NCBI GenBank assembly: GCA_003279445.1
Contig: QCHT01000012.1
Location: 1 to 45,501 of the forward strand
Length of the DNA: 45,501 bases
Reading direction: 5' to 3'
Source: Prochlorococcus sp. AG-402-G10
GTDB lineage: Bacteria; Cyanobacteriota; Cyanobacteriia; PCC-6307; Cyanobiaceae
Under the pieces are notes generated by a model, which was not told the DNA's origin, searched no databases, and was given only the letters and a program-made list of their open reading frames with translations. This document shows positions 460-34,903 of this stretch, one piece after another. The translations under genes and the position numbers were made by a program. How positions within the stretch are numbered: the first letter of the stretch is position 1; every line of letters starts with the position of its first letter.

Positions 460-494
460 AAAGAGGTGTTTATACTCTTTGGGTGTTGGTCTTA
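460..494 (+). repeat. 35-base promoter-like repeat, copy A
   Basis: This segment matches 2650-2684 at 34 of 35 positions (difference at 488/2678). It contains TATACT at 471-476, a good -10 box, and lies just downstream of a CDS on the same strand in both places. Here it directly precedes the structured RNA at about 483, so I read it as that RNA's promoter. Confidence 0.6.
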
Positions 495-585
495 GTTGGC
501 TAGAAATGCAATAGGAGTCCGAGCTCGTTGGTTAAAAAAAAGAGCTGGACTCAAAGGGGGACATCGAAATACGTCCCCCTTCTTC
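483..585 (+). ncRNA. Two-hairpin structured RNA, copy 1
   Basis: A non-coding segment closely matched, in inverted orientation, at 34799-34903. Hairpin I pairs GAGTCC (515-520) with GGACTC (547-552), extended by AGCTC (522-526) with GAGCT (542-546), leaving G521 bulged. Hairpin II pairs AAGGGGGAC (554-562) with GTCCCCCTT (573-581) around the ten-base loop ATCGAAATAC and looks like an intrinsic terminator. The other copy keeps the loop but swaps two base pairs in hairpin II with compensation on both sides, which is evidence for RNA structure. A -10 box lies at 471-476. I cannot assign it to a named Yfr RNA. Confidence 0.7.
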
Positions 586-683
586 ATGCTCAAAAATAAA
601 TTGAAAGTTTGAACAGAATCTATCGATTTCTTCTAATCCCTCTAAAGTATTTATGAGTGTGCCTGCTTTAGTTGTGCATCGGA

Positions 684-839
684 ATGCTGGCGATCAAGCT
701 ATTGATTAGATTGGCTTATGGAGAGCAGGCAGATCCCTTAAACCAACAAGTAGAAAGTTTTCTGTTTTGGGATTTGCCGCAACTTAGGACAATTTTTGAT
801 CGGAAATGTCCAGCGATAGAACCAGCTACCTATGACTAA
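684..839 (+). CDS. Doubtful 51-residue ORF
   Basis: An open frame of 51 codons from ATG 684, with no recognisable domain. Just upstream in another frame a short coding-like run (about 653-710) ends in TAG, so the segment may be the broken end of a lost gene. The rest of 590-915 holds nothing I recognise. Confidence 0.25.
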   Translation: MLAIKLLIRLAYGEQADPLNQQVESFLFWDLPQLRTIFDRKCPAIEPATYD

Positions 840-915
840 TTTCTCAGCCATGAGAGCTTTTTCACTATTTGTATTGTTTCTCTTAATTTGATTACCCTGC
901 TCAGTGCTTCTGAAA

Positions 916-1839
916 TTAAATGATATATTGAAGAAATAAAAACCAAAAGGGTATTGTAATTAAAGAAACTATAGTGCTATAGGTAACTAAAGAAGTAGCA
1001 ATTTTTTGTTCCTGCCCATATGCTTCAGCTAATAGCAGAACAGAAATTGCGGTAGGTGTTGCAGCTTGCAAAACGAGTGCATTACACATCAAATCTGACA
1101 AGTGGAGAGCTTTGCTAAGGATCAACATTAAGGATGGAAGAATAATTAGCTTTATAAGCAAGCTGGGCTGAAGTAATAATCGAAAGTCTCTTTTAAGAGG
1201 TTTCTCTGCTTGCTCAAAAGCTCCCAAGCGTATACCTACAACCATTAAAGCTAGAACAATTACAATCCCTGATGGGATTGAGAGAAATGAAGTGATTTGA
1301 GTATTCCATGGTGTTAATTGAACAAATATTGCTCCAACTAGTCCCTTGCTCGCAGGGCTGCTAGTAAGAGCATTGATAAAAATTTTCCAGTTAGCTTTTT
1401 TCTTTTGTTCTTGTGAGGAGGTCGATAAAAGCATGGGACCTAAGCTCCATACAAGTAACGTTGCACCCAGGTCATAACCAATACTGAAATTGAGTGACTC
1501 AGTTGGTAGAAGAGCTAATGAGACAGGTATCCCGAAATAACCAGAATTGCCGAAAAGGCTACCCAATAGCAGGCTACGACTACCAATATGACTTCGAATT
1601 TTTGGGAGAGTTCTAATTGCGGCTATCAGTATTCCAATAACAAGTAAGGCCATTACAAGAGCCTGAAAAAGAAGCCAATCCAGACCGCTTTTAAGTAGCA
1701 GTCCCATCAAACTCACTGGTACCCCGTAGTTGATAAGTGGCTTGGCTATTTGAGAGGAAAGTTCTGGCTTATAACGTCCAATGAAATAGCCCAGAGCAAG
1801 TAAGGGCAATAATTCATAAAAGAGCTTGAGAATTACCAT
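916..1839 (-). CDS. AEC-family transporter (auxin efflux carrier type permease)
   Basis: A 307-residue polytopic inner-membrane protein with about ten hydrophobic helices. It fits the AEC/PIN-like secondary carriers (PF03547). Typical features are the N-terminal LLPLLALGYFIGR helix, the G-N-S-G-Y-F-G-I-P motif near residue 97 and the short polar central loop with QEQKKK. Family members export organic anions such as malate, but the substrate here cannot be told from sequence. Length is usual for the family, and the start is ATG at 1839. It is monocistronic in appearance: the next minus-strand ORF upstream (1948-2121) ends 108 bases away. Confidence 0.88.
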   Translation of the reverse strand: MVILKLFYELLPLLALGYFIGRYKPELSSQIAKPLINYGVPVSLMGLLLKSGLDWLLFQALVMALLVIGILIAAIRTLPKIRSHIGSRSLLLGSLFGNSGYFGIPVSLALLPTESLNFSIGYDLGATLLVWSLGPMLLSTSSQEQKKKANWKIFINALTSSPASKGLVGAIFVQLTPWNTQITSFLSIPSGIVIVLALMVVGIRLGAFEQAEKPLKRDFRLLLQPSLLIKLIILPSLMLILSKALHLSDLMCNALVLQAATPTAISVLLLAEAYGQEQKIATSLVTYSTIVSLITIPFWFLFLQYII

Positions 1840-1947
1840 TTATTACTTTGGCTTATACAATGATGGACCTTCATCGAAGGAAGGCCTTCCTAATTAATTT
1901 CTTAAGATAGTGCTTATTGAGAGAGACATGAATCTCTATTAGCTGTA

Positions 1948-2121
1948 TTAATCCGTTCTTGTATGAATCCAACCAAAGTGTTTCAACATTTTTTGATGGA
2001 TATAGAACTTATTGGTTTTATTAAAGATAAAAGGCTCATTTCGTTTGTTCCTTAAAATCTGTAGGGCTACATGAGTTTGAATTCCTAGAAAAGCAAGTAC
2101 AAGTAGAGGTAGAGCAATCAT
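1948..2121 (-). CDS. Small single-helix membrane protein
   Basis: A 57-residue ORF with an ATG start. It has an N-terminal hydrophobic helix (residues 1-22, rich in Leu and Ala) followed by a basic, aromatic tail ending WIHTRTD. The residue pattern is typical of short picocyanobacterial membrane proteins. I do not recognise a family. It lies upstream of the AEC transporter on the same strand and might share a transcript. Confidence 0.55.
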   Translation of the reverse strand: MIALPLLVLAFLGIQTHVALQILRNKRNEPFIFNKTNKFYIHQKMLKHFGWIHTRTD

Positions 2122-2237
2122 CAAGTCATAACATTCATAAGTTCAATCTATTAAAAATTATCTAGTTATGTGAGAACATTCTTTAGATTCTCAAAATGCT
2201 TTAATGTCAATGTAGGTATTTGACCTACTGATATTCA

Positions 2238-2423
2238 ATGTCTGGAATCCTTTTTTTAATATTCAAGCCACTCTTGTTTTTAACTCTGAAAAAGTTTTTT
2301 AAGAAACAAATGAAAGCATGGATCGTTTCAGCTTTGGAATGGTTAGCACTTCAAACAGACAATGATATTGATGATGTAATCGTTATACGAGTTAAAAGTG
2401 CAATGAAACTAGGTGTTGTCTGA
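2238..2423 (+). CDS. Small membrane-associated protein, unknown
   Basis: A 61-residue protein with a strongly hydrophobic N-terminal helix (residues 3-18), a lysine-rich stretch (KKFFKKQMK) and an amphipathic C-terminal half with D-N-D-I-D-D. Its stop (TGA 2421-2423) is one base before the ATG of the next gene at 2425, so the two are probably translated from one message. Confidence 0.55.
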   Translation: MSGILFLIFKPLLFLTLKKFFKKQMKAWIVSALEWLALQTDNDIDDVIVIRVKSAMKLGVV

Positions 2424-2424
2424 C

Positions 2425-2649
2425 ATGTCTTCTCTTCAACACCCTTTATTCCATAGAACAATCAAAGCTTTATTAATAGACGTTCAAGAATCAGGGTATG
2501 AACCACCAACACTTGAGAATAGAGAGGCCTTTAAGAATGAGCTTCTACAGGAATTAGAGGAAAGCATCTCTCCCATTATTGAGCGATGTTGTTATCAGAA
2601 TCCTTATGTAAAAAGGAACGACGAGGAATCAAATCTTCCTAAGTGTTAA
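2425..2649 (+). CDS. Hypothetical protein coupled to the preceding gene
   Basis: A 74-residue soluble acidic protein from ATG 2425. An in-frame GTG at 2413 would overlap the previous gene, so I prefer the ATG. It holds a helical segment with E-N-R-E-A-F-K and several glutamates, then two adjacent cysteines (E-R-C-C-Y) near residue 59. No domain is recognised. A 35-base promoter-like repeat starts immediately after the stop. Confidence 0.6.
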   Translation: MSSLQHPLFHRTIKALLIDVQESGYEPPTLENREAFKNELLQELEESISPIIERCCYQNPYVKRNDEESNLPKC

Positions 2650-2684
2650 AAAGAGGTGTTTATACTCTTTGGGTGTTGTTCTTA
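2650..2684 (+). repeat. 35-base promoter-like repeat, copy B
   Basis: Matches 460-494 with one mismatch and carries the same TATACT (2661-2666). The hairpins that follow copy A are absent here, so this is a duplicated promoter without the RNA body. A 14-codon hydrophobic ORF beginning with ATG at about 2727 is the only nearby open frame on this strand. Confidence 0.5.
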
Positions 2685-2755
2685 CAAAGGTAGAGGCAAG
2701 AAGTAAAGACACCATCACTAAAACAATGATTTTGGTAATACTGTTTGGCACATTC

Positions 2756-3034
2756 CTATTCCTTTTCTGATCCTTGCCTTAGTTTAATCTCCTCTGTAGT
2801 CATTGGTATGCCCTTTCGATCCATTCTGGGCTCAGTCATCTTTTTAAACTTAGCTTCGTAATAACGTTTTCTTAGAAGGTCAAATTCTGAAAGGTATGTA
2901 TCAGGTGTACTTCTTAGTTCGATCTCTTCACTAAATTTTCTTTTTTCTTTTTGCTTCTCGATTTGTGCTTGACGCTGAAAAGCAAAAACCCAACCAATAC
3001 TCAAACCCAAAAAGAATGTAATTGTTGAGATCAT
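2756..3034 (-). CDS. Membrane-anchored coiled-coil-like protein
   Basis: A 92-residue protein. One N-terminal transmembrane helix (residues 3-19, ending W-V-F-A-F) is followed by a highly charged helical tail (QIEKQKEKRKFSEE and so on), suggesting a membrane-tethered helical rod. The start is ATG at 3034. No family is recognised. The 39-residue ORF upstream at 3085-3204 is on the same strand. Confidence 0.6.
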   Translation of the reverse strand: MISTITFFLGLSIGWVFAFQRQAQIEKQKEKRKFSEEIELRSTPDTYLSEFDLLRKRYYEAKFKKMTEPRMDRKGIPMTTEEIKLRQGSEKE

Positions 3035-3084
3035 AGAATTTCAGATGCTTTGATTCTGTTCATGGTGACTATGGTCGCTACTCC

Positions 3085-3204
3085 CTATGTTTCCCAATCT
3101 GTTCCATCATCATCATTTTCGCACTCATAGTTCAATAGAGATTCCATAACGTTCTCCTTTTTTTCTTCTTTGTTTGGCTGAACCTTTTCTTCTTGTTGAG
3201 GCAT
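3085..3204 (-). CDS. 39-residue acidic-tail microprotein
   Basis: The ORF starts MPQQEEK and ends with S-L-L-N-Y-E-C-E-N-D-D-D and a short W-E-T tail. The same layout (MP-Q-Q start, lysine-rich middle, SLLN followed by an acidic/Asn end) is seen in the frameshifted ORF at 17343-17451, so the two appear to be paralogous microproteins. Function unknown. It is missing from length-filtered ORF sets. Confidence 0.5.
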   Translation of the reverse strand: MPQQEEKVQPNKEEKKENVMESLLNYECENDDDGTDWET

Positions 3205-3489
3205 CAAAAAGTTTTTAGTGAAACTGCCCGGTCGCTAAATAGTTTAGGCTAAAAGTGAGTTTTTCATTAACCACGAGTTAGTATTTTATTGTCATTGCGA
3301 GGAAAAAGGTAAGGTTGTTTTTATATGTTTTGAGCGTTGTTGGTGTTTTGTTGGTTCGAGAAGTCCGTTTCTACTTCTTTACTCTTTTGGACAATTATGT
3401 TGTGAATGAGTGGAACATTCAAAGTGCTTTTGGAGTCGAGCGCATAGATATGTATTCTGCAGACCCGAATTGCTTTTTAAGCAATTAGC

Positions 3490-3594
3490 TTAGGAAGCAA
3501 GATTAATGGAAGCTAATACAGTAAAAATCCAGGCCGCAGCTTTTTTCTGATGAACTCCAGCTTGAAACAAAGGCTTAAAAGGATTGAATTCCAA
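3490..3594 (-). CDS. EFNPFKPL microprotein (34 aa, TTG start)
   Basis: The frame reads L-E-F-N-P-F-K-P-L-F-Q-A-G-V, then a lysine pair and a single hydrophobic helix ending INLAS. The first eight residues match the microprotein inside the hli cluster at 11907-11978. The only possible start is TTG 3594, as an in-frame TAG lies just upstream, so this may be a decayed copy. No other gene is supported in 3205-3489. Confidence 0.45.
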   Translation of the reverse strand: MEFNPFKPLFQAGVHQKKAAAWIFTVLASINLAS

Positions 3595-3768
3595 AGGCTA
3601 GGTATAAATGCTCACACCATCTTACAGCCTGAAGGCGCTTGTCGCGTAAGGATTTATTCCAATTTATATTAGAAGACCTTTTGGGACTAATTAGCAAAAC
3701 TTTTCGATCCTTCCTTTTGGCTTGTTGTTTTACGGTGCGAGTACTAGTTAGCAGCTTTGACTTTACTC

Positions 3769-3855
3769 TTACCATTCGAAGCCTGCTTGCTCTACCTCAC
3801 AGATAGGATAAGCCAGGCTGACTGGTGAATCTCCAATCTTTTCACTGGTCAGTAT
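3769..3855 (-). pseudogene. Rubredoxin-like C-terminal remnant, copy 1
   Basis: The frame reads S-E-K-I-G-D-S-P-V-S-L-A-Y-P-I-C-E-V-E-Q then A-G-F-E-W and stop. This aligns with the second half of rubredoxin (K-F-E-D-L-P-E-D-W-V-C-P-L-C-G...F-E). The first metal cysteine of the second CPxC is Tyr here, and there is no first CxxC and no start codon. A matching remnant lies at 12473-12640. Confidence 0.45.
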
Positions 3856-3964
3856 AGGGCATCAGTTATAGTTTTTAACCTTAGAGAAAAGTAGTGGTTA
3901 AAAAACTTCGATGTCGGGCTTTTCTTACTTCTATTTTTCCTTAATCTTGTAACACCTAAATCAA

Positions 3965-4912
3965 ATGACTTGGTCTATCAATGCAATTCCTAGCCAAGAA
4001 GGCCGAACAGTTTTTGTAACGGGTGCAAATAGTGGCTTGGGCTTCGACACAGCACAGGCTTTATTAGAAAAGGGTGCGACTGTAATTCTTGGGTGTAGAA
4101 CATTAGAAAAAGCTGAGAACTCACGACAAAAACTTCTTGATGAAACTGATTGTGGCAAAATTGATGTCATAGAGATAGATCTTGCTGATTTAGAAAAAGT
4201 AAATAAGGCTCTAGATCAAATTTCTGTCAAATATAAAAGATTAGATCTTTTGATTAATAATGCTGGTGTGATGGCACCTCCTCAAACATATAGCAAACAA
4301 GGGTATGAACTTCAATTTGCAGTTAATCATCTTAGTCATATGGCATTGACGCTTAAGCTGCTGCCATTAATTGCTAAACAACCAGGGGGACGTGTTGTAA
4401 CTGTTTCTTCTGGAGCTCAATATATGGGCAAAATTAAGCTAGATGGTCTTCAAGGAGGGGGAGAATATGATCGATGGTCTTCCTACTCACAAAGTAAACT
4501 TGCGAATGTTATGTTCGCCTTAGAGCTGAGCAAAAGATTACAGCAATCAAATTTAGATATTGCCTCATTATCTGCCCATCCGGGTTTAGCTCGCACGAAA
4601 TTACAATCCACATCAGTAGAACTTAATGGATCTTGGCATGAGGCTATAGCCTATAAATTAATGGATCCGATGTTTCAGAGTTCTCGTATGGGAGCTCTCC
4701 CGCAGCTTTTTGCCGCAACTGACCCAGCTGCAAAAACAGGAGAGCAATATGGACCTAGGTTTAATTTCAGAGGTTATCCTAAGGTTTGTCGTATAGCGCC
4801 ATCAGCTTTAAATAGCTATGAAAGAGAACAGCTATGGCAAGCGAGTGAAACACTCATTGGAGATGTAGTTGATATAAGTAAAGGGAAAGAACTTTTGAGT
4901 AAAAGGAGATAG
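3965..4912 (+). CDS. Short-chain dehydrogenase/reductase, protochlorophyllide-reductase/retinol-dehydrogenase-like
   Basis: A 315-residue cytosolic NAD(P)H oxidoreductase of the SDR superfamily. Visible motifs are the Rossmann TGANSGLG at residues 19-26, NNAG at 98-101, V-S-S-G with Ser148/149 and the catalytic YSQSK with Tyr174 and Lys178. Arg45 after strand 2 suggests NADPH preference (inference). Length and the long C-terminal part resemble the light-dependent POR / retinol-dehydrogenase subgroup, but the cysteines that bind Pchlide in true POR are not evident. The substrate is therefore unknown. It is preceded by about 100 bases of AT-rich leader, and the ATG at 3965 begins the frame. Confidence 0.85.
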   Translation: MTWSINAIPSQEGRTVFVTGANSGLGFDTAQALLEKGATVILGCRTLEKAENSRQKLLDETDCGKIDVIEIDLADLEKVNKALDQISVKYKRLDLLINNAGVMAPPQTYSKQGYELQFAVNHLSHMALTLKLLPLIAKQPGGRVVTVSSGAQYMGKIKLDGLQGGGEYDRWSSYSQSKLANVMFALELSKRLQQSNLDIASLSAHPGLARTKLQSTSVELNGSWHEAIAYKLMDPMFQSSRMGALPQLFAATDPAAKTGEQYGPRFNFRGYPKVCRIAPSALNSYEREQLWQASETLIGDVVDISKGKELLSKRR

Positions 4913-4927
4913 CTATTCTTGTCCAAA

Positions 4928-5044
4928 ATGACGACATTTTTGATAGCAGGTAATTTGCAAAGCTGCTTTGAATTGAATTTTTCTGATGATAAAGGGCATT
5001 GGACTGTCAAAACAACCGTTACTAATCCAGCTTTTGCTGATTAA
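4928..5044 (+). CDS. 38-residue ORF downstream of SDR gene
   Basis: A small ORF starting MTTFLIAGNL, 15 bases after the SDR stop on the same strand. Its stop overlaps the stop of the convergent gene at 5041. It has no domain, and its position is consistent with a two-gene operon. Confidence 0.4.
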   Translation: MTTFLIAGNLQSCFELNFSDDKGHWTVKTTVTNPAFAD

Positions 5045-5337
5045 TCAAAGTCAATGCCAACCTCTTCTTTAAGATCCCTATCTAAGTCTGGAAGATGTGG
5101 TTCTATCCAATGATCTTTATTTTCAATACCAGCAGCAGTTGCATAATTCATAATGTGCTGATCTACTTGTTTATAAATATCATGTAAATTTAAGTCTTGA
5201 CGAATATCATGTGCTATTTCTGCAACCTGTTGTTCTGTCAAGCAATGATCAGGATGTAGTAAATCACAACATGGAATTCTTTTTTCGATTAACTCATTTA
5301 TGTTGATTTTAATTTCGTAATCGTGATGTACAGTCAT
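5041..5337 (-). CDS. Hypothetical protein, His/Cys-containing
   Basis: A 98-residue soluble acidic protein. A segment R-I-P-C-C-D-L-L-H-P-D-H-C near residues 20-32 could bind a metal (inference). A helical region E-Q-Q-V-A-E-I-A-H-D-I-R-Q follows, with a D/E-rich C-terminus. ATG at 5337. No family is recognised. It is convergent with the 38-residue ORF, overlapping at the stop codons. Confidence 0.6.
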   Translation of the reverse strand: MTVHHDYEIKININELIEKRIPCCDLLHPDHCLTEQQVAEIAHDIRQDLNLHDIYKQVDQHIMNYATAAGIENKDHWIEPHLPDLDRDLKEEVGIDFD

Positions 5338-5449
5338 CCTGAAAGAAAACTTTTATTTTTATTTTAGTAGTTTTTCTAAAAATATCTATGTTCGGTTTGT
5401 TCTAGCTGCTCTTCTTTTTCATTGAGCTGATTATTATTCCTGCGAATGC

Positions 5450-5578
5450 ATGTGGGGAGGTCTGTCTAGGGAAATGGATATCACAAGTGTAGAGGGAGCT
5501 CTTTGTGTGTCTTTACAAGCTATAGAGGGAGGAGTTAGTAGAGAATTTTTTGAAGTTAGAGAGATTTTAGATGTTTGA
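5450..5578 (+). pseudogene. Truncated ORF whose end is repeated at 10181
   Basis: A 42-codon frame from ATG 5450 ends V-R-E-I-L-D-V-stop. After the stop the frame continues K-L-A-G-I-E-L-A-Q-E. The stretch at 10181-10220 gives V-R-E-I-L-D-I-L-K-R-A-G-I-stop, so the two are copies of one coding end, this one broken by TGA. Parent protein not recognised. Confidence 0.4.
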
Positions 5579-5920
5579 AAGCTTGCTGGTATTGAGCTGG
5601 CACAAGAGTCCAGAAACCCCTTCATTCTTCTTCAATTGAGTAATATTTGTGTAAAGGGAAAGGTAGGCGTATGGGGTTATGCGTCTTTGCTTGTAGATTT
5701 CTTGAGTTATTTTGTGTCGGTTATTACTGGCCGGTTTATTCGTAGAGACCGAAGTTCGGTGTGTATACCGCATCATTCCCTACGGTTTATAGCACCATCG
5801 AAAGAAACGATTTGGCTCATAGTGAATTTGTTGTTCCCATTCGTAGTGATGTATTCAGTTACTCGTTTCTCACTTGCCCCTTCCTTCTATTGCCCTGTTT
5901 ATGTCATCTCTGATAGCGAG

Positions 5921-6151
5921 ATGACTAAATTAAAAGCTCAACAACATCAAGACGAACTTGACTCAGTAGTGGATCAAAGAAAAAGATTAGAGGATGCTTA
6001 TGAGAAGCAAAGAAAGCATTTCCTTGAGCGAGAGAAATCCATCAAAAGTGAGTTGAAAGCGTTTGCTCCATTTGTAAGTAACCCTGTTAAAGAAACAGTT
6101 GAGAAAGCAGTTGAAGCAATTAAAGACACTGCGAAGAAAGTAGTCGCCTAA
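5921..6151 (+). CDS. Coiled-coil protein with amphipathic lysine-rich tail
   Basis: A 76-residue protein from ATG 5921. The open frame extends back to a TTG at 5636, and that extension would add a hydrophobic segment near 5810-5870. I prefer the ATG because the upstream part lacks a good start. The body is a charged helix (residues 5-45) followed by repeated amphipathic turns (V-K-E-T-V-E-K-A-V-E-A-I-K) resembling late-embryogenesis or phasin-like helices. Function unknown. Confidence 0.5.
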   Translation: MTKLKAQQHQDELDSVVDQRKRLEDAYEKQRKHFLEREKSIKSELKAFAPFVSNPVKETVEKAVEAIKDTAKKVVA

Positions 6152-6241
6152 GGTTTGTTTATTGGTTAATTGCCAAAACGATAGTGCTTTCGAATTGCTT
6201 TCTGCACTTCCCAAGTTTAAAATATCCCTTCGGGAAAAAAA

Positions 6242-6439
6242 CTAAAGCATCTCCTTCAAATTGACAGGTTCTCCACCATCAGGTGTAACTGTGATATCAA
6301 CTTCAAGTGTTAAACAGGTTTCTTTCTCGCTATATTCCCAAGGGAATGTGCTTGGATTACAAATCTAGATTGGCCAGCTTTTTATGTCTCTATCTTCAAT
6401 TTTTCTTAGAGAGTACGGAGATTTGACGGGAATGTTCAT
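6242..6439 (-). pseudogene. Cupin_3-like protein, interrupted and truncated
   Basis: From ATG 6439 the frame reads M-N-I-P-V-K-S-P through K-S-W-P-I, then TAG, then I-C-N-P-S-T-F-P-W-E-Y with E-K-E-T-C and V-T-P-D-G-G-E-P-V. This is the strand pattern of the Cupin_3 (DUF861/EutQ-like) family, where W-E-Y...E-T-C-Y...V-T-P-D-G-G-E-P-V is typical. The amber codon probably replaced TGG. The C-terminal half of the barrel is missing. Confidence 0.55.
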
Positions 6440-6487
6440 TGAATCAAACTTAGATGTATGGGGTTGATTGCGTTTATTATTTCTTAT

Positions 6488-6652
6488 ATGGAAAAGCCTC
6501 AGTGGAAACCTTCAGAAGAAGAACGAGAAGTAATGGAAGCTGTCTGGATGCAGGTTAAAGGTGCATGTGAGAAACTAAAAGAAGAAACTAATGCGCAAGA
6601 CGAACACATCAAAAAAATGCTTAAAGAAATGGCTGATCGTTATTATTCATGA
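6488..6652 (+). CDS. Small helical hypothetical protein
   Basis: A 54-residue protein from ATG 6488 (an in-frame ATG at 6458 would add ten hydrophobic residues). It is almost wholly a charged helix, with EEEREVMEAVW, a cysteine near residue 26 and a D-R-Y-Y-S end. The stop TGA (6650-6652) overlaps the next ATG as ATGA, indicating translational coupling with the membrane protein that follows. Confidence 0.55.
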   Translation: MEKPQWKPSEEEREVMEAVWMQVKGACEKLKEETNAQDEHIKKMLKEMADRYYS

Positions 6653-6828
6653 TGGAGAATATCAACGGAGGATATGTTGCGCTTGTAGTTGTTGGACTTG
6701 TGTTTTTTGCTCTTCAGGTCTGGTGGATAAGTATGACAATTAGAAATGGTAGGAATGAAAGAGTCCTGATAAATCAGAATCAGACTGACGAGACCAAGAA
6801 GAGACTTGAAAAGCTCTTTTCAAAGTAA
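6649..6828 (+). CDS. Single-pass membrane microprotein, coupled
   Basis: A 59-residue protein starting at the overlapping ATGATG. One transmembrane helix (residues 9-28, V-A-L-V-V-V-G-L-V-F-F) is followed by W-W-I-S and a basic tail of Asn, Gln and Lys. Its coupling to a soluble helical partner suggests that both act together at the membrane (inference). The following 6829-7030 contains only a start-less open stretch (I-G-L-T-P-E-E-A-G-E-T-T) that I do not call. Confidence 0.55.
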   Translation: MMENINGGYVALVVVGLVFFALQVWWISMTIRNGRNERVLINQNQTDETKKRLEKLFSK

Positions 6829-7030
6829 AAGGCTTGATTTGAAAGTTTTTTTGTAATTGGACTTACTCCGGAAGAAGCTGGAGAGACTACTGTGAATCAT
6901 TTAGCAAAAAGGTGCCAAGTAAATCTACTAACGGTTTTCGCCGAATCGATCGAGTTCCTCTAGCATTAACCCTTATTAAATTTAGAATCAGCGTGCCACC
7001 CGCTTGCTACTTAATTCGATTTAAAGAGAG

Positions 7031-7566: not shown

Positions 7567-7867
7567 GCTGTCTCATCTTGAGATCGTGTCTCTATAAGGA
7601 CTCTCTAGGATTTGGAATTTTTTAAGCTAATTTTGGCATTTAATGGCAAGAGCCTTAAATTCAGTCTTGTATCATTTTCACTTATCCACAGGCTCCAGTT
7701 AGATAAGAGCTTTAGCCCCCTTGTCAGTGGAAAGCCTGTGGAGAACTAATGAATTGCTGAGGAAAACTTAGACTTACACCATAGGAATGATTTACTTCTT
7801 ACTCTTCTCCCAATCTCATAGTTTGTCTCTTTTTCTCTTCGAAAGGTTACGGACTTGTCACTTGCAA

Positions 7868-11664: not shown

Positions 11665-11679
11665 TTTACAAAGCGATGT

Positions 11680-12750: not shown

Positions 12751-12787
12751 GAGGGGTTGTCAAATAATGACCTTTAGGTACGATTCG

Positions 12788-12878
12788 TTTGTGAGGAGTT
12801 TAGATCCTTCAGCAGTGGAAACAAGGAAACACTTGCTCAAGATCTTCAAAAGGACCTGCTTAACGGCAGGTTTTTTTT
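12788..12878 (+). ncRNA. yfr2: Yfr2-family small RNA
   Basis: Carries the family hallmarks: a 5' TGTGAGGAGT (12790-12799), complementary to the conserved ACUCCUCACA loop of Yfr1, then the unpaired GTGGAAACAAGGAAACACTT core (12816-12835), and an intrinsic terminator ACCTGC / GCAGGT (12854-12871) followed by T7. A TACGAT -10 box lies at 12779-12784. Yfr2 RNAs occur in most cyanobacteria and kiss with Yfr1. The ends are set by eye. Confidence 0.82.
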
Positions 12879-26298: not shown

Positions 26299-26500
26299 AA
26301 CCCCTCATTTCTTGCCTCTTTCTGATCGAAGAGACTAACCAATCAAGAGGAAGAATGATTACTTGTATCAAGCTGAACAGCACCAAAGAAATCGAATTGA
26401 TATGATAATTATGTAGCAACAACTACAGAAAAACGTTCGACTCGCAACATTGCTGAGCTGCAGTTCGACTCAAGCCAGGGAACGGGGACTTGAGCTAACA

Positions 26501-27592: not shown

Positions 27593-27664
27593 CAAGCGAT
27601 TCGCAGGAAATCCGGTAGGATTTGCCTAGCTTGTGAGAAGCGTTGTTTGAGTCCTTAGCTAGTA

Positions 27665-28453: not shown

Positions 28454-28613
28454 AAGTAATTCTAACTATTTTATAGAAGGCACTAAAAAACCGCCCATCA
28501 GGCTCTACAACATTAGACAAAAAAAACGCCTCAAAGAGTAGAGCTCTATTGGACAATTGTGTGACGAGTTCCTATATCTTTTATACTCCTGTCCAGTGCA
28601 TTTTTTCACCCAT

Positions 28614-29471
28614 TTAAGAAAATAAAGTTCCTTGAATAATTAGAGCTTTCTCCCTTTTGCTTAGATGGACTTCTTTTACATATTGCTCTGAATAGGCACA
28701 GTTCTTACAGCTTTCATTTGGCTCTGGGATTTCGTGTTGATTCATCAAGTTAACCATTTCGTCAACCTTTTTCTCTATCCAATTGCTATTCCATTTATAG
28801 GGAACTAGATACTCTTCAAAATGCATTGTCTGATAAAAGCCATCTTCATCTCTCTTGGCATTGCAGACCAAGAAGTAAGAAGTTGGATGAACATCAAAAC
28901 CCATCCCTGAAAGTAGGTAGGCATAGAAGTCCATTTGGACTTTGTAGCCGTCATGGTAACAGTCGTCTAAGTATTCTTGTTTGTCCACTCGACCATTCTT
29001 GGCTTGTGATTTGTAGTCAACGATAATCAATTGCTGAGTGTTTGTATCTTGCCATATATCATCTATTCCTCCAGTAAGAATTATGCTTGTGTTTTTGTGT
29101 CTAAGCTTTAATCCGTGATGCAATGAGTCCCTCCAGTTGTCAATCTCTGGATGATCAAAAGGAACAACATGCCTTAAGCCATTAGGTGCAAAAAGGCGAT
29201 GTGCTTTGTGGTTTTCTCGGCAATGGTCAAATTCTTTTTTTAGTAGTAAGTCAGTTGTTTCATTGAGCGTCCATCCTGGTGTTCCCGGAGCATCAAGACC
29301 CTTTACGCGATCTAAGTAGAAGCACCTTTTGCAGGTTAGGAAATTGGAGAAACGACCTCTACTGATCTTGAAGTCAGTTTTTTGATTAGGGGTATAAGAA
29401 GAGGATGCTCTACTGCGCAAACCAGTCGCTTTTACAGGTTCCTTTTTGCAGTTTCGTTTGAGGTCAATCAT
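28614..29471 (-). CDS. PD-(D/E)XK nuclease with Fe-S cysteines (Cas4/RecB-like)
   Basis: 285 residues from ATG 29471 (a TTG two codons earlier opens the frame). Active-site order: G-G-I-D-D (Asp138), V-D-Y-K (Asp152, Lys154) and the Q-M-D motif (Gln179). Cysteines C-K-R-C (47, 50) and C-K-N-C (255, 258) flank the core as in Cas4/AddB [4Fe-4S] nucleases. So a single-strand-processing or repair exonuclease is likely. No CRISPR or recB partner is nearby. It lies 24 bases after a two-helix membrane protein and may share its transcript. Confidence 0.8.
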   Translation of the reverse strand: MIDLKRNCKKEPVKATGLRSRASSSYTPNQKTDFKISRGRFSNFLTCKRCFYLDRVKGLDAPGTPGWTLNETTDLLLKKEFDHCRENHKAHRLFAPNGLRHVVPFDHPEIDNWRDSLHHGLKLRHKNTSIILTGGIDDIWQDTNTQQLIIVDYKSQAKNGRVDKQEYLDDCYHDGYKVQMDFYAYLLSGMGFDVHPTSYFLVCNAKRDEDGFYQTMHFEEYLVPYKWNSNWIEKKVDEMVNLMNQHEIPEPNESCKNCAYSEQYVKEVHLSKREKALIIQGTLFS

Positions 29472-29494
29472 TTTCAAACTATTTCTAGCTGCTT

Positions 29495-29695
29495 TTATGC
29501 AGCCTTCTTTGCTTGGCTAAAGATGAACGCAAGCAATAAACCCATCCCTAGTAAAGGCAGAAGATTTTTTAAAAGATGAACTACAAAAAGAACGCCTAAA
29601 CCGCCACCAGCAAAAATTAGCCATTTAGGTAAAGGTTTTACAGCTTTCCTTCTCATTGAGCTATGAGGAGGCATTACCTCTGGATTAATTGCCAT
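29495..29695 (-). CDS. Two-helix membrane protein upstream of the nuclease
   Basis: 66 residues: polar Pro/Lys N-terminus (M-P-P-H-S-S-M-R-R-K), hydrophobic Gly/Leu segments at about 26-41 and 44-60. Close spacing to the nuclease suggests an operon. Function unknown. Confidence 0.65.
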   Translation of the reverse strand: MAINPEVMPPHSSMRRKAVKPLPKWLIFAGGGLGVLFVVHLLKNLLPLLGMGLLLAFIFSQAKKAA

Positions 29696-29910
29696 TCTTA
29701 TTTAAAACCTTTATTTAATAGTAAGTGGTTAAAAATAAACAGCAATCCCCTGTTTCAATCATGCGCAATTGCAAAATGAAGCTTCGTTCTCTTCGATGTC
29801 GTGAGTGGCTTTTCATAAATTTTGTCATTTTTTTCAGCTTGAATTGATTCACCTCTAATATATTGCTTTGCATCTGAATAGACCTTGCTGCGTTATTGGT
29901 TTAGCTATAT

Positions 29911-29962
29911 AAAAAACTTCTTCTCACTGCTATTAGTAGCGATCAAGAAGGTTAAGTTTTTT
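29911..29962. terminator. Long hairpin, possible bidirectional terminator
   Basis: Three stacked pairs: AAAAAACTT/AAGTTTTTT, CTTCTT/AAGAAG and GCTA/TAGC around a TTAG loop. Both strands end in T runs. No gene is found in 29696-30106 besides this. Confidence 0.5.
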
Positions 29963-30106
29963 ATGATATGAGGAATGCATTGCCCACTAGGTAATGGCTA
30001 TTTGCTAGGGCAATCACTTCCATAATCTTGATCATTTAGAAATTAATGTTTACTGCTTTGATTGACTAGGCATGTTTTATCGTTATAAATAAGCAACTAT
30101 ATTTAT

Positions 30107-30202
30107 ATGATGCTTCATTTCTTCGTGCTTGATTTACTGGCTTTATTGCTGCTAGCAATATGCATTATCCAGTTAAGTGAAGAAAAGTCGGAAAAGGCTT
30201 GA
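30107..30202 (+). CDS. 31-residue membrane microprotein
   Basis: M-M-L-H-F-F-V-L-D then a Leu-rich helix and a S-E-E-K-S-E-K tail. Typical of single-helix subunits; unknown. Confidence 0.4.
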   Translation: MMLHFFVLDLLALLLLAICIIQLSEEKSEKA

Positions 30203-30280
30203 AATGTTCAGAAAGTCTTAGCCCTAAGAGTTGCGATGAGCAGGATAAAGCTAAACCATATATAGAAAAAAATTATCATT

Positions 30281-30406
30281 TTACGCCTTAAAATGTTTGT
30301 CAATACGAGGTAGTTGTGGCTCGAAGATAGGGCCAGGCCGTGTGTATGCGATGTAGCTTTTATCTCTAGAATTCCAGAGCATATTTATGCATGGCTTGGT
30401 GCACAT
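30281..30406 (-). CDS. Cysteine-containing 41-residue protein
   Basis: Starts M-C-T-K-P-C-I-N-M-L-W-N and contains T-R-P-G-P-I-F-E-P-Q-L-P-R. Coherent composition and a clean ATG argue that it is real. I recall similar short conserved proteins in picocyanobacteria but cannot name the family. Confidence 0.55.
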   Translation of the reverse strand: MCTKPCINMLWNSRDKSYIAYTRPGPIFEPQLPRIDKHFKA

Positions 30407-30482
30407 GGAGACCTGCTTCTGAAGTGTTTTGAAAGGCATTGAAGAAACTGTCGGAATCATTTCGCCTAGAATGCAAGAGTAT

Positions 30483-30512
30483 CCCTTTATAGTACATGAG
30501 TACTATAAAGGG
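30483..30512. repeat. Perfect 12-bp inverted repeat
   Basis: CCCTTTATAGTA / TACTATAAAGGG with loop CATGAG. No T tract. It lies inside a TTG-started plus-strand ORF (30429-30620) that I do not accept. 30513-30768 shows nothing else. Confidence 0.45.
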
Positions 30513-30768
30513 TCAAGTGTATGGCCTGATGTGTTTCTCTTTAGTTGCAGGTTTGATTATCTAAGGCTAGAAATTTGTTTTAGCTTAAGAATTTCCAACT
30601 TGCTTGTTACCGTCTTTTAGGCTCCTTGAGAGTTTAGAATGTGACTAGTCAAAGAACTTTTTGCCCCTTCTCTAAATGGTCAATTAATGAGGTCTCTATA
30701 GATTGTTTTAATGAATGAATACAAGGAATGGGTGGCAGTGAAGGAATTAGGTAGAGTTTGTAGAAGTT

Positions 30769-30936
30769 TTACCTTCTCTTTTCACTCCAGTGATACAAGT
30801 AATAAACAATTAAACTAAGTATGATAATTGGTGTATAGGTTCTAATTAAAGCAAGTCCTGCGAATGCGATTACAGGTAGAAGTATTAGACGTTTCGTTCT
30901 GAGTGATATGTATCGCCAATTTCGGAACTTTGCCAT
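30769..30936 (-). CDS. Two-helix small membrane protein, coupled
   Basis: 55 residues with a basic arm (M-A-K-F-R-N-W-R-Y), then two hydrophobic runs and a W-S-E-K-R-R end. Its ATG overlaps the previous stop (TAATG), so it is coupled to 30936-31109. Confidence 0.6.
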   Translation of the reverse strand: MAKFRNWRYISLRTKRLILLPVIAFAGLALIRTYTPIIILSLIVYYLYHWSEKRR

Positions 30937-31109
30937 TATGGAAAAGGAAAATCAGAGGTTGTTTTAAATAGGTCTGCAACTTTCATTATTACCCATAGAA
31001 CTAGAGCACCCTCTAATAATCCAGATAAGTACATTTGGTATCCAGATAAGCCAAACTCTTCTTGAGCGCGTTCAACAAGAGATTTGTGCCAGTCAATTAT
31101 TCTTTTCAT
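30936..31109 (-). CDS. 57-residue hypothetical, first of a coupled pair
   Basis: M-K-R-I-I-D-W-H-K-S-L-V-E-R-A-Q then Y-Q-M-Y-L-S-G-L-L-E-G and a hydrophobic helix. TAATG junction with the next ORF. The pair probably forms a membrane unit. 31110-31277 holds no gene. Confidence 0.6.
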   Translation of the reverse strand: MKRIIDWHKSLVERAQEEFGLSGYQMYLSGLLEGALVLWVIMKVADLFKTTSDFPFP

Positions 31110-31277
31110 CTTTATAACGGACGCTCAAAAAGGCTAGTGCAAAAGCAATCATGTATCATTACTCCTTAATGTGGCTTAATTGGTTTTTTATTTGACTTTC
31201 GATTTAGTTAAGTACTACAACCGCTAGAGTATGGATTCAGCTTATGCTTTTGATTTATAAATAGAATGATGAAAAGA

Positions 31278-32396
31278 TCAATTGTCAATACTTTCTTTCC
31301 AACTTATTAATGCCGAAAGAGTTTGTTTCACAATACCTGAGGCTATAGATAACTTTGATTGATTGATGCCTTCTTGAAGTGTTTTTGATGCTCCTGATAG
31401 CCATAGGTATACACCTGCATTCCAGTTAAGAGCTTTTACTAAAGCGCCTTTATTGTTAAGTGCATCAAAAGCATGATCCCTCCAACTATCAATGCTTTGC
31501 CACTTAATATCCTCGCCATAACAGTCATAGTCGCGAGGATGAAGGATCAATCGATGACGTTTACCTTGCTTTGTAAAGCTTGCTATGCATGTTCGACTGA
31601 TTGGCAGATCAGTACTTCCTTCAAGGCCTTTTATGGTTATAGCACTGGCTTCTCCAACTATTTGAAGACATTGCCAAGCACGATCTTCTGTGGGTGGATG
31701 AACAAATCCGCTGACAAGCAGATGTTCGCCCTGATGAGCTGTCCATAGTAGCTCCATGCTTGCTATAGGTGGACGCTTACCTATTTCATCTCGATATGAA
31801 ATGAGAGAGTCTGCGATTGGGAAATGGTCAGGTTGATAAATAAAGGCAAAATCATTTTCATGAAATCCAGACTGAACTTGCATTAGCGATAAACCACTTA
31901 GGTTCAGCCCTAGTGCCTGAAACAGTTCTTGCGATGTGACTCCATATTTTGTAGGCATACGCTTCCCACCATGTAGTACCAAAGGTTGCTTATTGGCAAG
32001 AAGAATTAAGAATGTGAGTGGATATATAGGCGATGTCTTATTTCTTCCATCAAATGGCATTCCAAAACAAAGTGGTCTGAGCTGGTTCTTTTTGGATATT
32101 AGCTTCGGTCCAAGTTCCTTATAAGTATCAAGCATCCCTGCTAACTCTTGAGGCTCAGGTCTTCTAATTCGATGAGCAATCATAAATGCTCCGATTTGGG
32201 CAGGTGTAGCTTTGGAATTTAGAATTAAGTTCAAAGCTACAGATGATTCTTGCCGGCTAAGCGATTTGCTAGTCTCCGTGCCACTCCCAATTTTTCTTAG
32301 ATAATACTTAAAGCCCTCTTTGCTTTGTTCGTTTATCGATGAAATCACGCTGCCACTTAAATTCTTTTGTAACTTAGGAGTATCATTGTTGCTCAT
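31278..32396 (-). CDS. Anthranilate phosphoribosyltransferase family protein (TrpD2-like)
   Basis: A 372-residue protein of nucleoside phosphorylase/phosphoribosyltransferase class IV fold. N-terminal helical part (A-T-P-A-Q-I-G-A-F-M-I-A-H-R-I-R) and the phosphate region H-G-G-K-R-M-P-T-K-Y-G align with TrpD, while the canonical G-T-G-G-D is replaced (F-G-M-P-F-D-G-R). Such YbiB/TrpD2-like proteins are DNA-binding or of unknown reaction rather than tryptophan enzymes. ATG at 32396. It follows a separate acidic-protein gene by 52 bases on the same strand. Confidence 0.82.
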   Translation of the reverse strand: MSNNDTPKLQKNLSGSVISSINEQSKEGFKYYLRKIGSGTETSKSLSRQESSVALNLILNSKATPAQIGAFMIAHRIRRPEPQELAGMLDTYKELGPKLISKKNQLRPLCFGMPFDGRNKTSPIYPLTFLILLANKQPLVLHGGKRMPTKYGVTSQELFQALGLNLSGLSLMQVQSGFHENDFAFIYQPDHFPIADSLISYRDEIGKRPPIASMELLWTAHQGEHLLVSGFVHPPTEDRAWQCLQIVGEASAITIKGLEGSTDLPISRTCIASFTKQGKRHRLILHPRDYDCYGEDIKWQSIDSWRDHAFDALNNKGALVKALNWNAGVYLWLSGASKTLQEGINQSKLSIASGIVKQTLSALISWKESIDN

Positions 32397-32448
32397 TAAA
32401 ACTCACAATAATTGAACTTAAGGAAATACATCTCTTGCATCAGTTTTC

Positions 32449-32979
32449 TCAGTCTTCGTAGTGATCATCAATCCAATCCCGCATGTCCTGAATAGCAATT
32501 TTCGTGGCTGCCTCCAAGTCATCCTCTCCTACATTTAATCCTTTTTTCTTTGCTTTTCTTTCTAGGATTAGCATTACCTCATCTTCTGCGTCTGACCCAC
32601 TGTAGGAGAGTCCCTCGCTATCAAGTTTTTCTTGAAGCTTTTCAGAGGAAATTAATTTTACAACTTCATCTAAAGGAGTCGAAGTAATGCCAGAAAATGC
32701 TTTCCCGCTAGTTATTAAATAATCAAAGGCAAAAATCTTGTACTCGTCTGGATAACCATCCCCAAGCAATGAATTTTCTTCAAACTCTTCAATATCATCA
32801 TCATCCATCCCGTTTTTTTCCCAATATTGATTTTTGGCATCCTCCCCATCGTCAGGATCTAGGTTGAATGCCTCTTGATTCTCATCAAAAAAAGTCACCT
32901 TCTGTTTATTTGTCTTGCATAATTGAGCAATGTTCCAATACTGCTGAATCTTCTCTAGGAGCTTTTGTTCGTGAGTCAC
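32449..32979 (-). CDS. Acidic hypothetical protein
   Basis: 176 residues from GTG 32979, no ATG alternative. Very acidic (D-D-D-D-I-E-E-F-E-E, D-D-G-E-D), with helical segments K-L-L-E-K-I-Q and a C-terminal I-A-I-Q-D-M-R-D-W-I-D-D. No membrane segment. No family recognised. It lies 52 bases upstream of the TrpD-like gene. Confidence 0.65.
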   Translation of the reverse strand: MTHEQKLLEKIQQYWNIAQLCKTNKQKVTFFDENQEAFNLDPDDGEDAKNQYWEKNGMDDDDIEEFEENSLLGDGYPDEYKIFAFDYLITSGKAFSGITSTPLDEVVKLISSEKLQEKLDSEGLSYSGSDAEDEVMLILERKAKKKGLNVGEDDLEAATKIAIQDMRDWIDDHYED

Positions 32980-32999
32980 TTAATAATTAAATACTTTTA

Positions 33000-33365
33000 C
33001 AAAGCATAGTTGAATTGAAGTACTAGAGAGTGGGATTGACCAAAAGATAATATCAAGTTCCCATTTCTAAGTGTTTTGCCATGCATTACAGCTCATAGCT
33101 AGATTAATCATCACTTTTTTGACAAGTTTTGGACCTTCTTGGGGGAGAAGGTTGATGCCTGCAATAGATGCGAACTTGATTATTGGACTTTGCTTGAAAA
33201 TAAAGAATGATTGCTATAGCTTGTGAAATTAACTCTATTTTGAGCCATAGTAATTATATTGCCTAGAAATCTTCATAACAAAATTCATGTATTCCCTATG
33301 GGGGATGACAATTCTGAGCTTTAATTTCTCTAGCTTTGACGCTTTGTAGTTGGAGAATTTGACAG
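33000..33365. other. Gene-poor stretch
   Basis: AT-rich sequence with no ORF over 30 codons that looks coding and no strong hairpin. Confidence 0.5.
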
Positions 33366-33863
33366 TTAATCTAGGACCCAGTAGCCGCTCCAATCTGGCT
33401 TCATCCCATCATCTCGCAATTGGGGGTCTTGCTCTAAAACAACTGTGTACTCCTTTAATTGAATGATTGCAGCATGGTCATCTTTGTGGATTTGGTTCAT
33501 TGGTTCAGACCATTTGTTGCGTGCTTTCTTTTTTGCAACTTGGATTGATGGTGCAACGACAATCTCTAAGTGATGCTGTTCAAGAAGCTCATCGGTTTTA
33601 TATCCTCCAAAATTTACGAACCAGAGCTTATTTACTCCCTGCCTGGGATTACTATTTTTATTTATTAAGTTAACTTTGTAGCCATCTACAAATTGGATTG
33701 CTTTATAGCTATCTATGTGCAGACCTGAAGCTTTGCCAATCCACTCTGTTTTTAGATTTGGGAATGTGGACTCAATTGTTTCTCCGATTACCCAGCGAAC
33801 ATCGTGTATCTCTACATGACCTCCGTAAACCTTCCCTCCCAGAACTACAAGGTATAAATTCAT
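33366..33863 (-). CDS. DUF1543 domain protein (two repeats)
   Basis: 165 residues. First DUF1543 unit (residues 1-60): L-G-G-K-V-Y-G-G-H-V-E-I-H-D-V-R-W-V-I-G-E with L-H-I-D-S-Y. Second unit (about 80-165) begins L-W-F-V-N-F-G-G-Y. Function unknown, and the double unit is normal in this family. A 15-bp hairpin lies 16 bases before the ATG. Confidence 0.88.
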   Translation of the reverse strand: MNLYLVVLGGKVYGGHVEIHDVRWVIGETIESTFPNLKTEWIGKASGLHIDSYKAIQFVDGYKVNLINKNSNPRQGVNKLWFVNFGGYKTDELLEQHHLEIVVAPSIQVAKKKARNKWSEPMNQIHKDDHAAIIQLKEYTVVLEQDPQLRDDGMKPDWSGYWVLD

Positions 33864-33878
33864 TTAGTGAGAATTTCA

Positions 33879-33912
33879 TCATATAAGTCATCACCAATGA
33901 TGACTTGTATGA
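33879..33912. promoter_or_regulatory. 15-bp palindrome upstream of the DUF1543 gene
   Basis: TCATATAAGTCATCA / TGATGACTTGTATGA with loop CCAA and one mismatch, a G-T wobble in one strand's RNA. 16 bases before the start codon on the minus strand: an operator or a leader hairpin. Confidence 0.55.
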
Positions 33913-34104
33913 GATCAGTCGGTGAGAAATTTTAACTTTTCTGTTTAGCCTCTTCAGAAGATGTTCTTGAAGCTTGTCGCTGTAAAATTTCAGGCATTAG
34001 GACATTGAAGATTCACATAGTTTTACTTAATAATTTAGAGCTGACGTAATTAGTTTTAGTTTAGGTTGATTTCGAGGGGAAATTCTCTCCTTGGAGACGT
34101 TTTT

Positions 34105-34446
34105 TTATTTACCCATTGCTCTTCTAAGCTTTGTAGCTTCATCCATACCTTCCATGATTGTGAAAGTTGCATCTTTCGTTGCAGCATTCCTAAGCTTTGA
34201 TAGTGCTTGATAAGTAGAAGACTCATAAGCCTCAACGGCATCACGCATAGAGGGGAACTCACAAATAATTGCTAAATTTGCTCCTTCTGTTCTTTCTTTC
34301 CCTTGCGGCTCTGTGTCTTTTGCAAAAACTTTCCCTCCCACTTCTTTGAGCCATGGACTGACCTCTTTAACATACTCTGAAAACAACTCGTGATTAGTAA
34401 TTGTTGAGGTTGAAATCCAGTAACCTTTGGCACCTTTCTTATCCAT
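34105..34446 (-). CDS. DUF1330 domain protein
   Basis: 113 residues with a ferredoxin-like alpha/beta layout of DUF1330: K-G-Y-W-I-S-T-S-T-I at strand 1, Y-V-K-E-V-S-P-W-L-K, G-G-K-V-F-A-K-D, then N-L-A-I-I-C-E-F-P-S-M and A-Y-E-S-S-T-Y-Q-A. Function unknown, possibly a small-molecule binder. ATG at 34446. Stands alone. Confidence 0.85.
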   Translation of the reverse strand: MDKKGAKGYWISTSTITNHELFSEYVKEVSPWLKEVGGKVFAKDTEPQGKERTEGANLAIICEFPSMRDAVEAYESSTYQALSKLRNAATKDATFTIMEGMDEATKLRRAMGK

Positions 34447-34576
34447 AAAAAATTTAGAAGATCAAAAACTCTGTTTATATGATATACATTATTGATCTGG
34501 ATAAATAAAGTCATCGACAAAATCTTCTTCGTGAGTACCTCCAGATTGAATCCCTCTTACCTAGATCATTAAGTAT

Positions 34577-34729
34577 TTAAGCCGCATTAGTTTTATTTAC
34601 TGCACTCATTTTTGCGGCCATAGTTCTAGAAAAAACTTTCAGACAAAATACAATTGTTGCGATTAAACCCCATTCCCAAAATTTCTTTCTAATGGTAAAT
34701 AGACCTGTAAGTATTAATTTCCTTGATAA
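34577..34729 (-). CDS. Open frame without a standard start
   Basis: About 50 codons after an in-frame TAA: L-F-T-I-R-K-K-F-W-E-W-G-L then a helix I-A-T-I-V-F-C-L-K-V-F. No ATG, GTG or TTG precedes the helix. Likely a decayed small membrane protein. Confidence 0.3.
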   Translation of the reverse strand, partial: LSRKLILTGLFTIRKKFWEWGLIATIVFCLKVFSRTMAAKMSAVNKTNAA

Positions 34730-34798
34730 TTAGCTCCCATGTAGTTTTGATAAGTATCTATCAAGAAGAGAATAAAATATCTCATATAAAAGTTGATA

Positions 34799-34903
34799 TG
34801 AATAAGGGGAGCGTATTTCGATGCTCCCCTTTGAGTCCAGCTCTTTTGTTTCCTTTAATGAGCTCGGACTCCTATTTATGTATTAGCCAATTCAGGACGA
34901 TGC
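34799..34903 (-). ncRNA. Two-hairpin structured RNA, copy 2
   Basis: Minus-strand copy of 483-585. Identical blocks: GGAGTCCGAGCTC, AGAGCTGGACTCAAAGGGG and the loop ATCGAAATAC. Hairpin II is AAGGGGAGC (34831-34823) with GCTCCCCTT (34812-34804), differing from copy 1 at two base pairs with compensation. Promoter: TTTACT at 34915-34910 in the same distance to GGCTA as in copy 1. Downstream T-rich end CCCCTTATT. Confidence 0.7.

What the first reader, a model, noticed from the sequence alone, without database searches (positions are those of the whole stretch)
483..34903. Two inverted copies of a structured RNA with compensatory base pairs
483-585 (+) and 34799-34903 (-) share a promoter-proximal element, hairpin I and the ten-base loop of hairpin II. 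In hairpin II the closing pairs change from G-C/A-T to A-T/G-C on both arms (AAGGGGGAC/GTCCCCCTT vs AAGGGGAGC/GCTCCCC(TT)). The distance from -10 box to GGCTA is equal in both. I cannot tie it to a named cyanobacterial sRNA.
Basis: partly seen in the sequence, partly recalled or inferred. Interest (0 to 1): 0.75.

Follow-up and report, generated by a model that had tools for sequence, protein, structure and literature searches.

The report
Multi-copy two-hairpin small RNA family
The two look-alike stretches are copies of what is probably a short non-coding RNA gene with two hairpins and its own promoter, and relatives with matching changes in the hairpins turn up widely among the tiny marine cyanobacteria of the Prochlorococcus group, which makes it a likely regulatory RNA that can be tested in laboratory strains.

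Summary
Both sites carry the element, with two double compensatory changes in hairpin II. They are 2 of 4 copies in this Prochlorococcus genome. BLAST finds it in 13 of 14 genomes of the genus and, with a high-light copy as query, in 112 of 151 genomes of the high-light genus. A covariance model finds it in 88 of 300 family genomes, and in 4 of 146 genomes of a phylum sample, all four in this family. Covariation is strong. In a pattern scan blind to pairing, 45 of 45 matches pair at one freely varying position and 44 of 45 at another. 106 aligned promoters place the -10 box at 501-506, not 471-476, so the predicted RNA is about 75 nt (513 to ~588), not ~105. Rfam has no match above threshold. 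13 published MED4 Yfr RNAs do not match, and the strain list of Yfr103 does not fit. The 2014 MED4/MIT9313 start-site paper is not held, so single copies may already be catalogued. Best reading: a multi-copy trans-acting sRNA family. Transcription and targets are inferred, not shown.

The parts
460..478 (+). Copy 1: conserved upstream box AAAGAGGTGTTTATACTCT, about -53 to -35 of the predicted start; likely activator or polymerase-contact site.
   Evidence: Aligned upstream regions of 106 copies: two neighbouring T positions kept in 102 and 96 of 106.
479..484 (+). Copy 1: weak -35 (TTGGGT)
   Evidence: Inferred from the fixed spacing; TTGA, CTGACG or ATGACG stands there in other clades. Not found by the consensus scan.
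501..506 (+). Copy 1: predicted -10 TAGAAA
   Evidence: TA at its first two positions in 94 of 106 copies; TAGAAA in 41, TATAAA in 5. TATAAA in the copy of the MED4-sized genome.
513..588 (+). Copy 1: predicted sRNA, about 72-76 nt
   Evidence: Start inferred 7 nt after the -10; end inferred from hairpin II and the conserved TTCTTCATG. No transcript data.
515..552 (+). Copy 1: hairpin I (515-520 with 547-552; bulge 521; 522-526 with 542-546; A-rich loop)
   Evidence: Fold, consensus, pair counts, pairing-blind test.
554..581 (+). Copy 1: hairpin II, probable terminator hairpin, loop ATCGAAATAC 563-572
   Evidence: Most high-light relatives have a T-rich run after it.
34908..34927 (-). Copy 2: upstream box AAAACAAGTGTTTTTACTCT
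34880..34885 (-). Copy 2: predicted -10 TAATAC
34798..34873 (-). Copy 2: predicted sRNA
   Evidence: Inferred from the same alignment; no transcript data
34833..34871 (-). Copy 2: hairpin I
   Evidence: Fold, alignment
34804..34831 (-). Copy 2: hairpin II with two compensated pairs relative to copy 1

Best explanation
The two sites are paralogous copies of a small-RNA gene. Each has an upstream box, a sigma-70-type -10 at fixed spacing, and a transcript of about 75 nt that begins at AGGAGUC. The RNA folds into hairpin I (11 bp, one bulge, clade-specific apical loop) and a GC-rich terminator hairpin II. Shown: the conserved anatomy, the covariation, the paralogy and the spread through the picocyanobacterial family. 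Inferred: transcription, the start site, termination at hairpin II, and the action. Most likely it acts in trans by pairing through its loops, chiefly loop I, with mRNAs, and several copies provide dose or separate control, as in other multi-copy bacterial sRNAs. I put the trans-acting sRNA gene family at about 0.77 and the loop-pairing mechanism at about 0.45.
For: Four copies in the own genome; 13 of 14 genus genomes; 88 of 300 family genomes in 39 of 59 genera; 112 of 151 genomes of the high-light genus by BLAST; 4 of 146 in a phylum sample, all four in this family. Pair counts on 54 MAFFT-aligned rows, 52 of them from other genera, with the structure taken from the own genus: 97.0% of cells paired, 13 of 20 pairs with double changes, 130 double-change cells against 48.0 in shuffles and at most 7 when slid. 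Pattern scan in which the arm letters vary independently: 45 of 45 complementary at one position (23 T/A, 22 A/T) and 44 of 45 at another, 9 of these as G-U. Single genomes hold subtypes that differ by compensated changes. Fixed promoter spacing, with TA at the first two -10 positions in 94 of 106. Loop lengths vary by single bases, against coding. In 37 high-light rows the loop is nearly unchanged while the promoter spacer varies. Downstream genes differ between copies, and copy 1 has no same-strand ORF of 80 aa or more until 3965.
Against: No expression data were seen. The consensus scans find neither promoter nor terminator at either window site; the low-light tail TTCTTCATG is a poor T-run. 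Of five relatives folded, one (L080, the MIT9313-sized genome) folds little better than its shuffles (z -1.12, 27 of 200 shuffles as good; the others -3.2 to -4.7). Loops differ between clades, so there is no universal seed. An 18-base antisense pattern to the high-light loop found in four genomes only family copies and scattered 3-mismatch sites, no more than the reversed control. In 9 of 107 elements a small gene starts 11 bases after the element, which leaves room for a leader role there. Most rows from other genera were recruited with a structure-aware model, which favours pairing; the genus BLAST set, the high-light BLAST set and one search are free of that.
Confidence: 0.77

Rival explanations
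1. It is a 5' leader (attenuator or riboswitch-like element) of downstream genes, with hairpin II as the regulated terminator.
For: In 9 of 107 elements one small gene (HPLFHRT type) starts 11 bases after the element, and in 5 another (IPRWEYMT type) starts 58-59 bases after it. Own promoter plus two hairpins is a leader-like layout.
Against: The downstream genes differ from group to group. Copy 1 in the window has no same-strand ORF of 80 aa or more before 3965; shorter ones of 40-78 aa lie between. The DUF1330 gene after copy 2 is ~350 bases away. The minimum-energy folds keep the two hairpins apart; no systematic search for alternative pairings was made.
Confidence: 0.1
2. It is a dispersed palindromic repeat or miniature mobile element; its spread is by transposition or repeat copying and the promoter resemblance is incidental.
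For: Multi-copy, variable position. Recent identical copies exist: in G096 the exact identity begins at the upstream box (-55) after different flanks, and in G265 it ends 8 bases after the element's tail.
Against: The three identical pairs examined have different extents (138, 245 and 1354 bases), which fits segment duplication or gene conversion better than one defined mobile unit. No match in phage records or, by pattern, in viral contigs. Promoter spacing is kept over 106 copies and pairing across genera. Terminal repeats and target duplications were not tested formally.
Confidence: 0.09
3. It is an already named picocyanobacterial sRNA, seen before strain by strain (Yfr103, one of Yfr106-108, or an unnamed start site in the 2014 MED4/MIT9313 maps). 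This can be true together with the best explanation.
For: PMC5069720 (passages read) reports Yfr103 as multi-copy, structured and with an imperfect palindrome at -29 to -58, which resembles the upstream box here. PMC7368042 (section 9 read) validates NATL2A sRNAs Yfr106-108 without giving sequences in that section.
Against: The Yfr103 paralogs of CC9605 are 290-328 nt, and Yfr103 is listed for RCC307 but not for MIT9211. Here the RCC307-sized genome (G036) has no match at E <= 0.01 and the MIT9211-sized one (G089) has three strong ones. 13 MED4 Yfr regions at their printed coordinates give no full-length match.
Confidence: 0.3

Closest known systems
Yfr103 (Prochlorococcus MIT9313, marine Synechococcus)
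   Same: Multi-copy, strongly structured, conserved upstream palindrome, picocyanobacteria (PMC5069720, passages).
   Different: 290-328 nt in CC9605 against ~75 nt predicted here; the strain list does not fit.
Yfr106, Yfr107, Yfr108 (NATL2A)
   Same: Low-light-clade sRNAs with conserved structures (PMC7368042, section 9).
   Different: Cannot be compared: no sequences or coordinates in the section read. The NATL2A-sized genome has family copies at 384029-384190 (+) and 1591339-1591514 (+).
Yfr11/Yfr16 and other Yfr8-Yfr21 RNAs (MED4)
   Same: Experimentally shown sRNAs; Yfr11/16 are a related pair (PMC2518516, passages and section 8).
   Different: 13 regions at the printed coordinates show only matches of 10-35 bases (best E 0.004 over 14 bases) and none by model R2, which however also missed 4 of 12 fetched high-light loci.
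Cyano-1 / Yfr2 family (RF01701)
   Same: Multi-copy cyanobacterial sRNA (recalled); one copy lies in the same window at 12785-12850.
   Different: The Rfam model matches at 12785 and not at either site here.

Membership tests
Structured trans-encoded bacterial sRNA gene | Conserved secondary structure with compensatory changes | tested here: met
Structured trans-encoded bacterial sRNA gene | Own promoter at fixed spacing | tested here: met
   106 aligned upstream regions, TA at the first two -10 positions in 94; the consensus scan is negative
Structured trans-encoded bacterial sRNA gene | Intrinsic terminator | tested here: inconclusive
   Hairpin II conserved; a T-rich run only in high-light members; scan negative in the window
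Structured trans-encoded bacterial sRNA gene | Detected transcript and base-pairing targets | not testable with these tools
   No RNA data; one antisense pattern search gave no shared target
Any Rfam 15 family | Score above the gathering threshold | tested here: not met
   Window; sensitive searches of both sites give only sub-threshold matches (best snoR2 on the other strand, 25.7 bits against 44); seven relatives from six genera
Yfr103 | Strain distribution | tested here: not met
Yfr103 | Sequence identity | not testable with these tools
   No sequence in the passages seen; Voigt 2014 not held
Phage element | Match in phage or viral collections | tested here: not met
   (pattern)
Insertion sequence end | Terminal repeats and target duplications | not tested
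   Only the extent of identity of three recent copy pairs was looked at

The most novel reading that the evidence does not exclude
A so far unrecognised sRNA family spans the picocyanobacterial family, from high-light Prochlorococcus through low-light clades to a few Synechococcus. It keeps one promoter-plus-two-hairpin plan while the hairpin I loop (from about 15 to 55 nt) is rebuilt in each clade and then held nearly fixed, so that each clade has retargeted the same scaffold.
Probability: 0.45. Interest if true: 0.65.

Novelty: new member of a known kind. Interest (0 to 1): 0.5.

Why it matters
Prochlorococcus has few regulatory proteins (stated in the PMC2518516 abstract), so a widespread multi-copy RNA regulator would be a sizeable part of its control system. 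The family gives exact coordinates in genomes that match laboratory strains by length, so existing start-site maps can confirm or reject it at once. It could be added to Rfam.

Tried and rejected
Rejected: a coding gene (no covering frame on the copy 1 strand; loop lengths vary by one base). Identity with 13 MED4 Yfr RNAs. NtcA control as a general rule: GTA-N8-TAC occurs exactly, centred at -41.5 by my count, in only 3 of 106 promoters, all in the clade of the MIT9313-sized genome; kept as a lead only. The 5' AGGAGU as an anti-Yfr1 motif (ACUCCU): not kept in the Synechococcus-like copies and buried in hairpin I. A shared antisense target of the high-light loop: none found. A longer RNA running past hairpin II: downstream sequence falls into several groups, and 29 of 110 rows find no similar downstream stretch at all.

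Full report
What is there. At 460-588 (+) and 34927-34798 (-) the window holds two copies of one element. Both have hairpin I, whose arms are identical in the two copies, and hairpin II with the loop ATCGAAATAC, in which two adjacent base pairs are exchanged on both arms between the copies. Both fold better than their shuffles, z -3.29 and -3.31. No Rfam family reaches its threshold there.

It is a family. A BLAST search of the own genome gives 14 matches at E <= 10. Four are strong (C12:483, C8:87276, C23:725, C12:34798); the other ten cover 14-25 bases at E 0.01-2 and were left out. In the genus 13 of 14 genomes match. A covariance model R1, built from 30 genus copies found by BLAST and aligned without structure (A1), matches 88 of 300 family genomes in 39 of 59 genera, with 1-6 matches each. 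It misses high-light genomes such as G029, so this is a low count. In a phylum sample it matches 4 of 146 genomes, all four of this family, the own genome included. A second model R2 that includes distant copies matched 9 of 27 chosen genomes at E <= 0.01: four known positives, three Synechococcus-like genomes (4, 2 and 1 copies) and two high-light ones with weak scores. 18 did not match, among them G091, where R1 had given a weak match. BLAST with a high-light copy then found it in 112 of 151 genomes of that genus, the query's own included. The 43 stretches of the sequence-pattern scan are all titled Prochlorococcus. Strain names used here (SS120, MIT9211, NATL2A, MIT9313, MED4, RCC307, WH8109) rest on my recall of genome lengths compared with contig lengths, not on a label in a call.

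Covariation. On A1 alone, 2 of 20 pairs show double changes. Searches gave 121 model matches, with repeats of the same places. From these I took 54 rows (2 of the own genus, 52 of other genera) into A3 and 28 distant rows plus 3 reference rows into A4; weak matches were left out, and one strong match (L130) was left out by oversight. With the structure mapped from A1, A3 has 97.0% of cells paired, 13 of 20 pairs with double changes and 130 such cells (48.0 in shuffles, at most 7 slid). A4 (29 distinct rows) has 96.9%, 8 pairs and 57 cells against 19.0; two of its five measures were reached by 12 and 58 of 500 shuffles. Because these rows were recruited with a structure-aware model, I used the pattern scan as a test blind to pairing: two arm positions vary independently in the pattern, while the rest of both arms is fixed. 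All 45 matches (35 distinct) are complementary at one (23 T/A, 22 A/T) and 44 of 45 at the other, 9 of them as G-U. Single genomes hold two subtypes, for example G131 with AGCTC/GAGCT plus GGGGGAC/GTCCCCC, and AGCAC/GTGCT plus GGGCGGG/CCCGCCC. Of five relatives folded, four are well below their shuffles and one (L080) is not (z -1.12).

Promoter and ends. 106 copies were set against each other at the first G of hairpin I, without gaps, over 66 bases upstream (rows with less were dropped; many are close relatives of each other). TA stands at the first two -10 positions in 94 of 106; TAGAAA is the commonest hexamer (41), with TATAAA in 5. The MED4-sized genome has TATAAA there. This places the start at the A of AGGAG (513 and 34873). 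Three copies of the MIT9313-sized clade carry GTA-N8-TAC centred at -41.5, the recalled NtcA arrangement; the other 103 do not. The T-rich run after hairpin II in most of 37 high-light rows, which were picked by a short 3'-arm motif, argues that it is the terminator; in the window the tail is TTCTTCATG and the terminator scan is negative.

Context. Copy 1 follows a DUF3764 gene by about 75 bases, and a DUF1330 gene lies ~350 bases after copy 2. Across 107 elements no neighbour is general: the commonest cluster lies beside 15. One small gene starts 11 bases after 9 elements and another 58-59 bases after 5. Three pairs of identical copies share 138, 245 and 1354 bases. Phage and viral collections gave no match.

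How it may work. Shown: a conserved, structured, multi-copy element with a promoter-like upstream region. Inferred: it is transcribed as a ~75-nt RNA, ends at hairpin II, and acts in trans. The hairpin I loop differs between clades, but in the high-light rows it is nearly invariant while the promoter spacer varies. That fits a loop held by targets or a protein partner. A search for a long antisense match gave nothing shared, so targets are unknown.

Known or new. Searches for named sRNAs: Yfr103 (one paper, passages read), Yfr101, 102, 104 and 106-108 (two papers; section 9 of PMC7368042 read in two parts, passages of PMC6778093), Yfr22-27, and Prochlorococcus sRNA work in general (listings; PMC2518516 passages and section 8). 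The MED4 regions of Yfr8 and Yfr10-21 give no full-length BLAST match, only 10-35 bases (best E 0.004), and no R2 match; R2 also missed 4 of 12 fetched high-light loci, so that part is weak. Yfr103 disagrees in length and strain list. The 2014 start-site paper is not held, so I cannot say that single copies are unpublished; in these searches I saw no paper that joins the clades into one family.

The identical copy pairs moved the mobile-repeat rival up slightly (0.07 to 0.09) and the best explanation down by 0.01.

Noticed in passing
26431-26494 (+): Glutamine-II riboswitch, 63.4 bits against a gathering score of 33.
   Followed up: no
12785-12850 (+): Cyano-1 (Yfr2-type) sRNA, 60.6 bits, followed by a hairpin and T-run by eye.
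   Followed up: no
L081:500-2150: A Synechococcus-like genome packs four family copies in about 2 kb, interleaved with a second repeated terminator-like unit (4 copies) that may be another RNA.
   Followed up: partly
L080 and L115: In the MIT9313-sized genome two identical copies sit in a 1354-base duplicated segment with small genes whose starts look like prochlorosin-type leaders (recalled family). By eye, the upstream box of these copies lies inside such a leader frame, as if the RNA gene had cut into it.
   Followed up: partly
G082 1005134-1062754: Five of the nine matches in that genome lie within about 58 kb.
   Followed up: no
L027, L054, L069 and relatives: A small gene of the HPLFHRT type starts 11 bases after the element in 9 of 107 cases; a relative is at window 2413-2649, where no copy of the element was found.
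   Followed up: partly
L030, L071, L126: These copies keep the hairpins but have a different upstream region; in L071 and L126 the -10 is also gone: decay or other promoters.
   Followed up: no
L074-L077, L091, L093: The NATL-type members have a ~55-nt hairpin I loop with much shared sequence.
   Followed up: no
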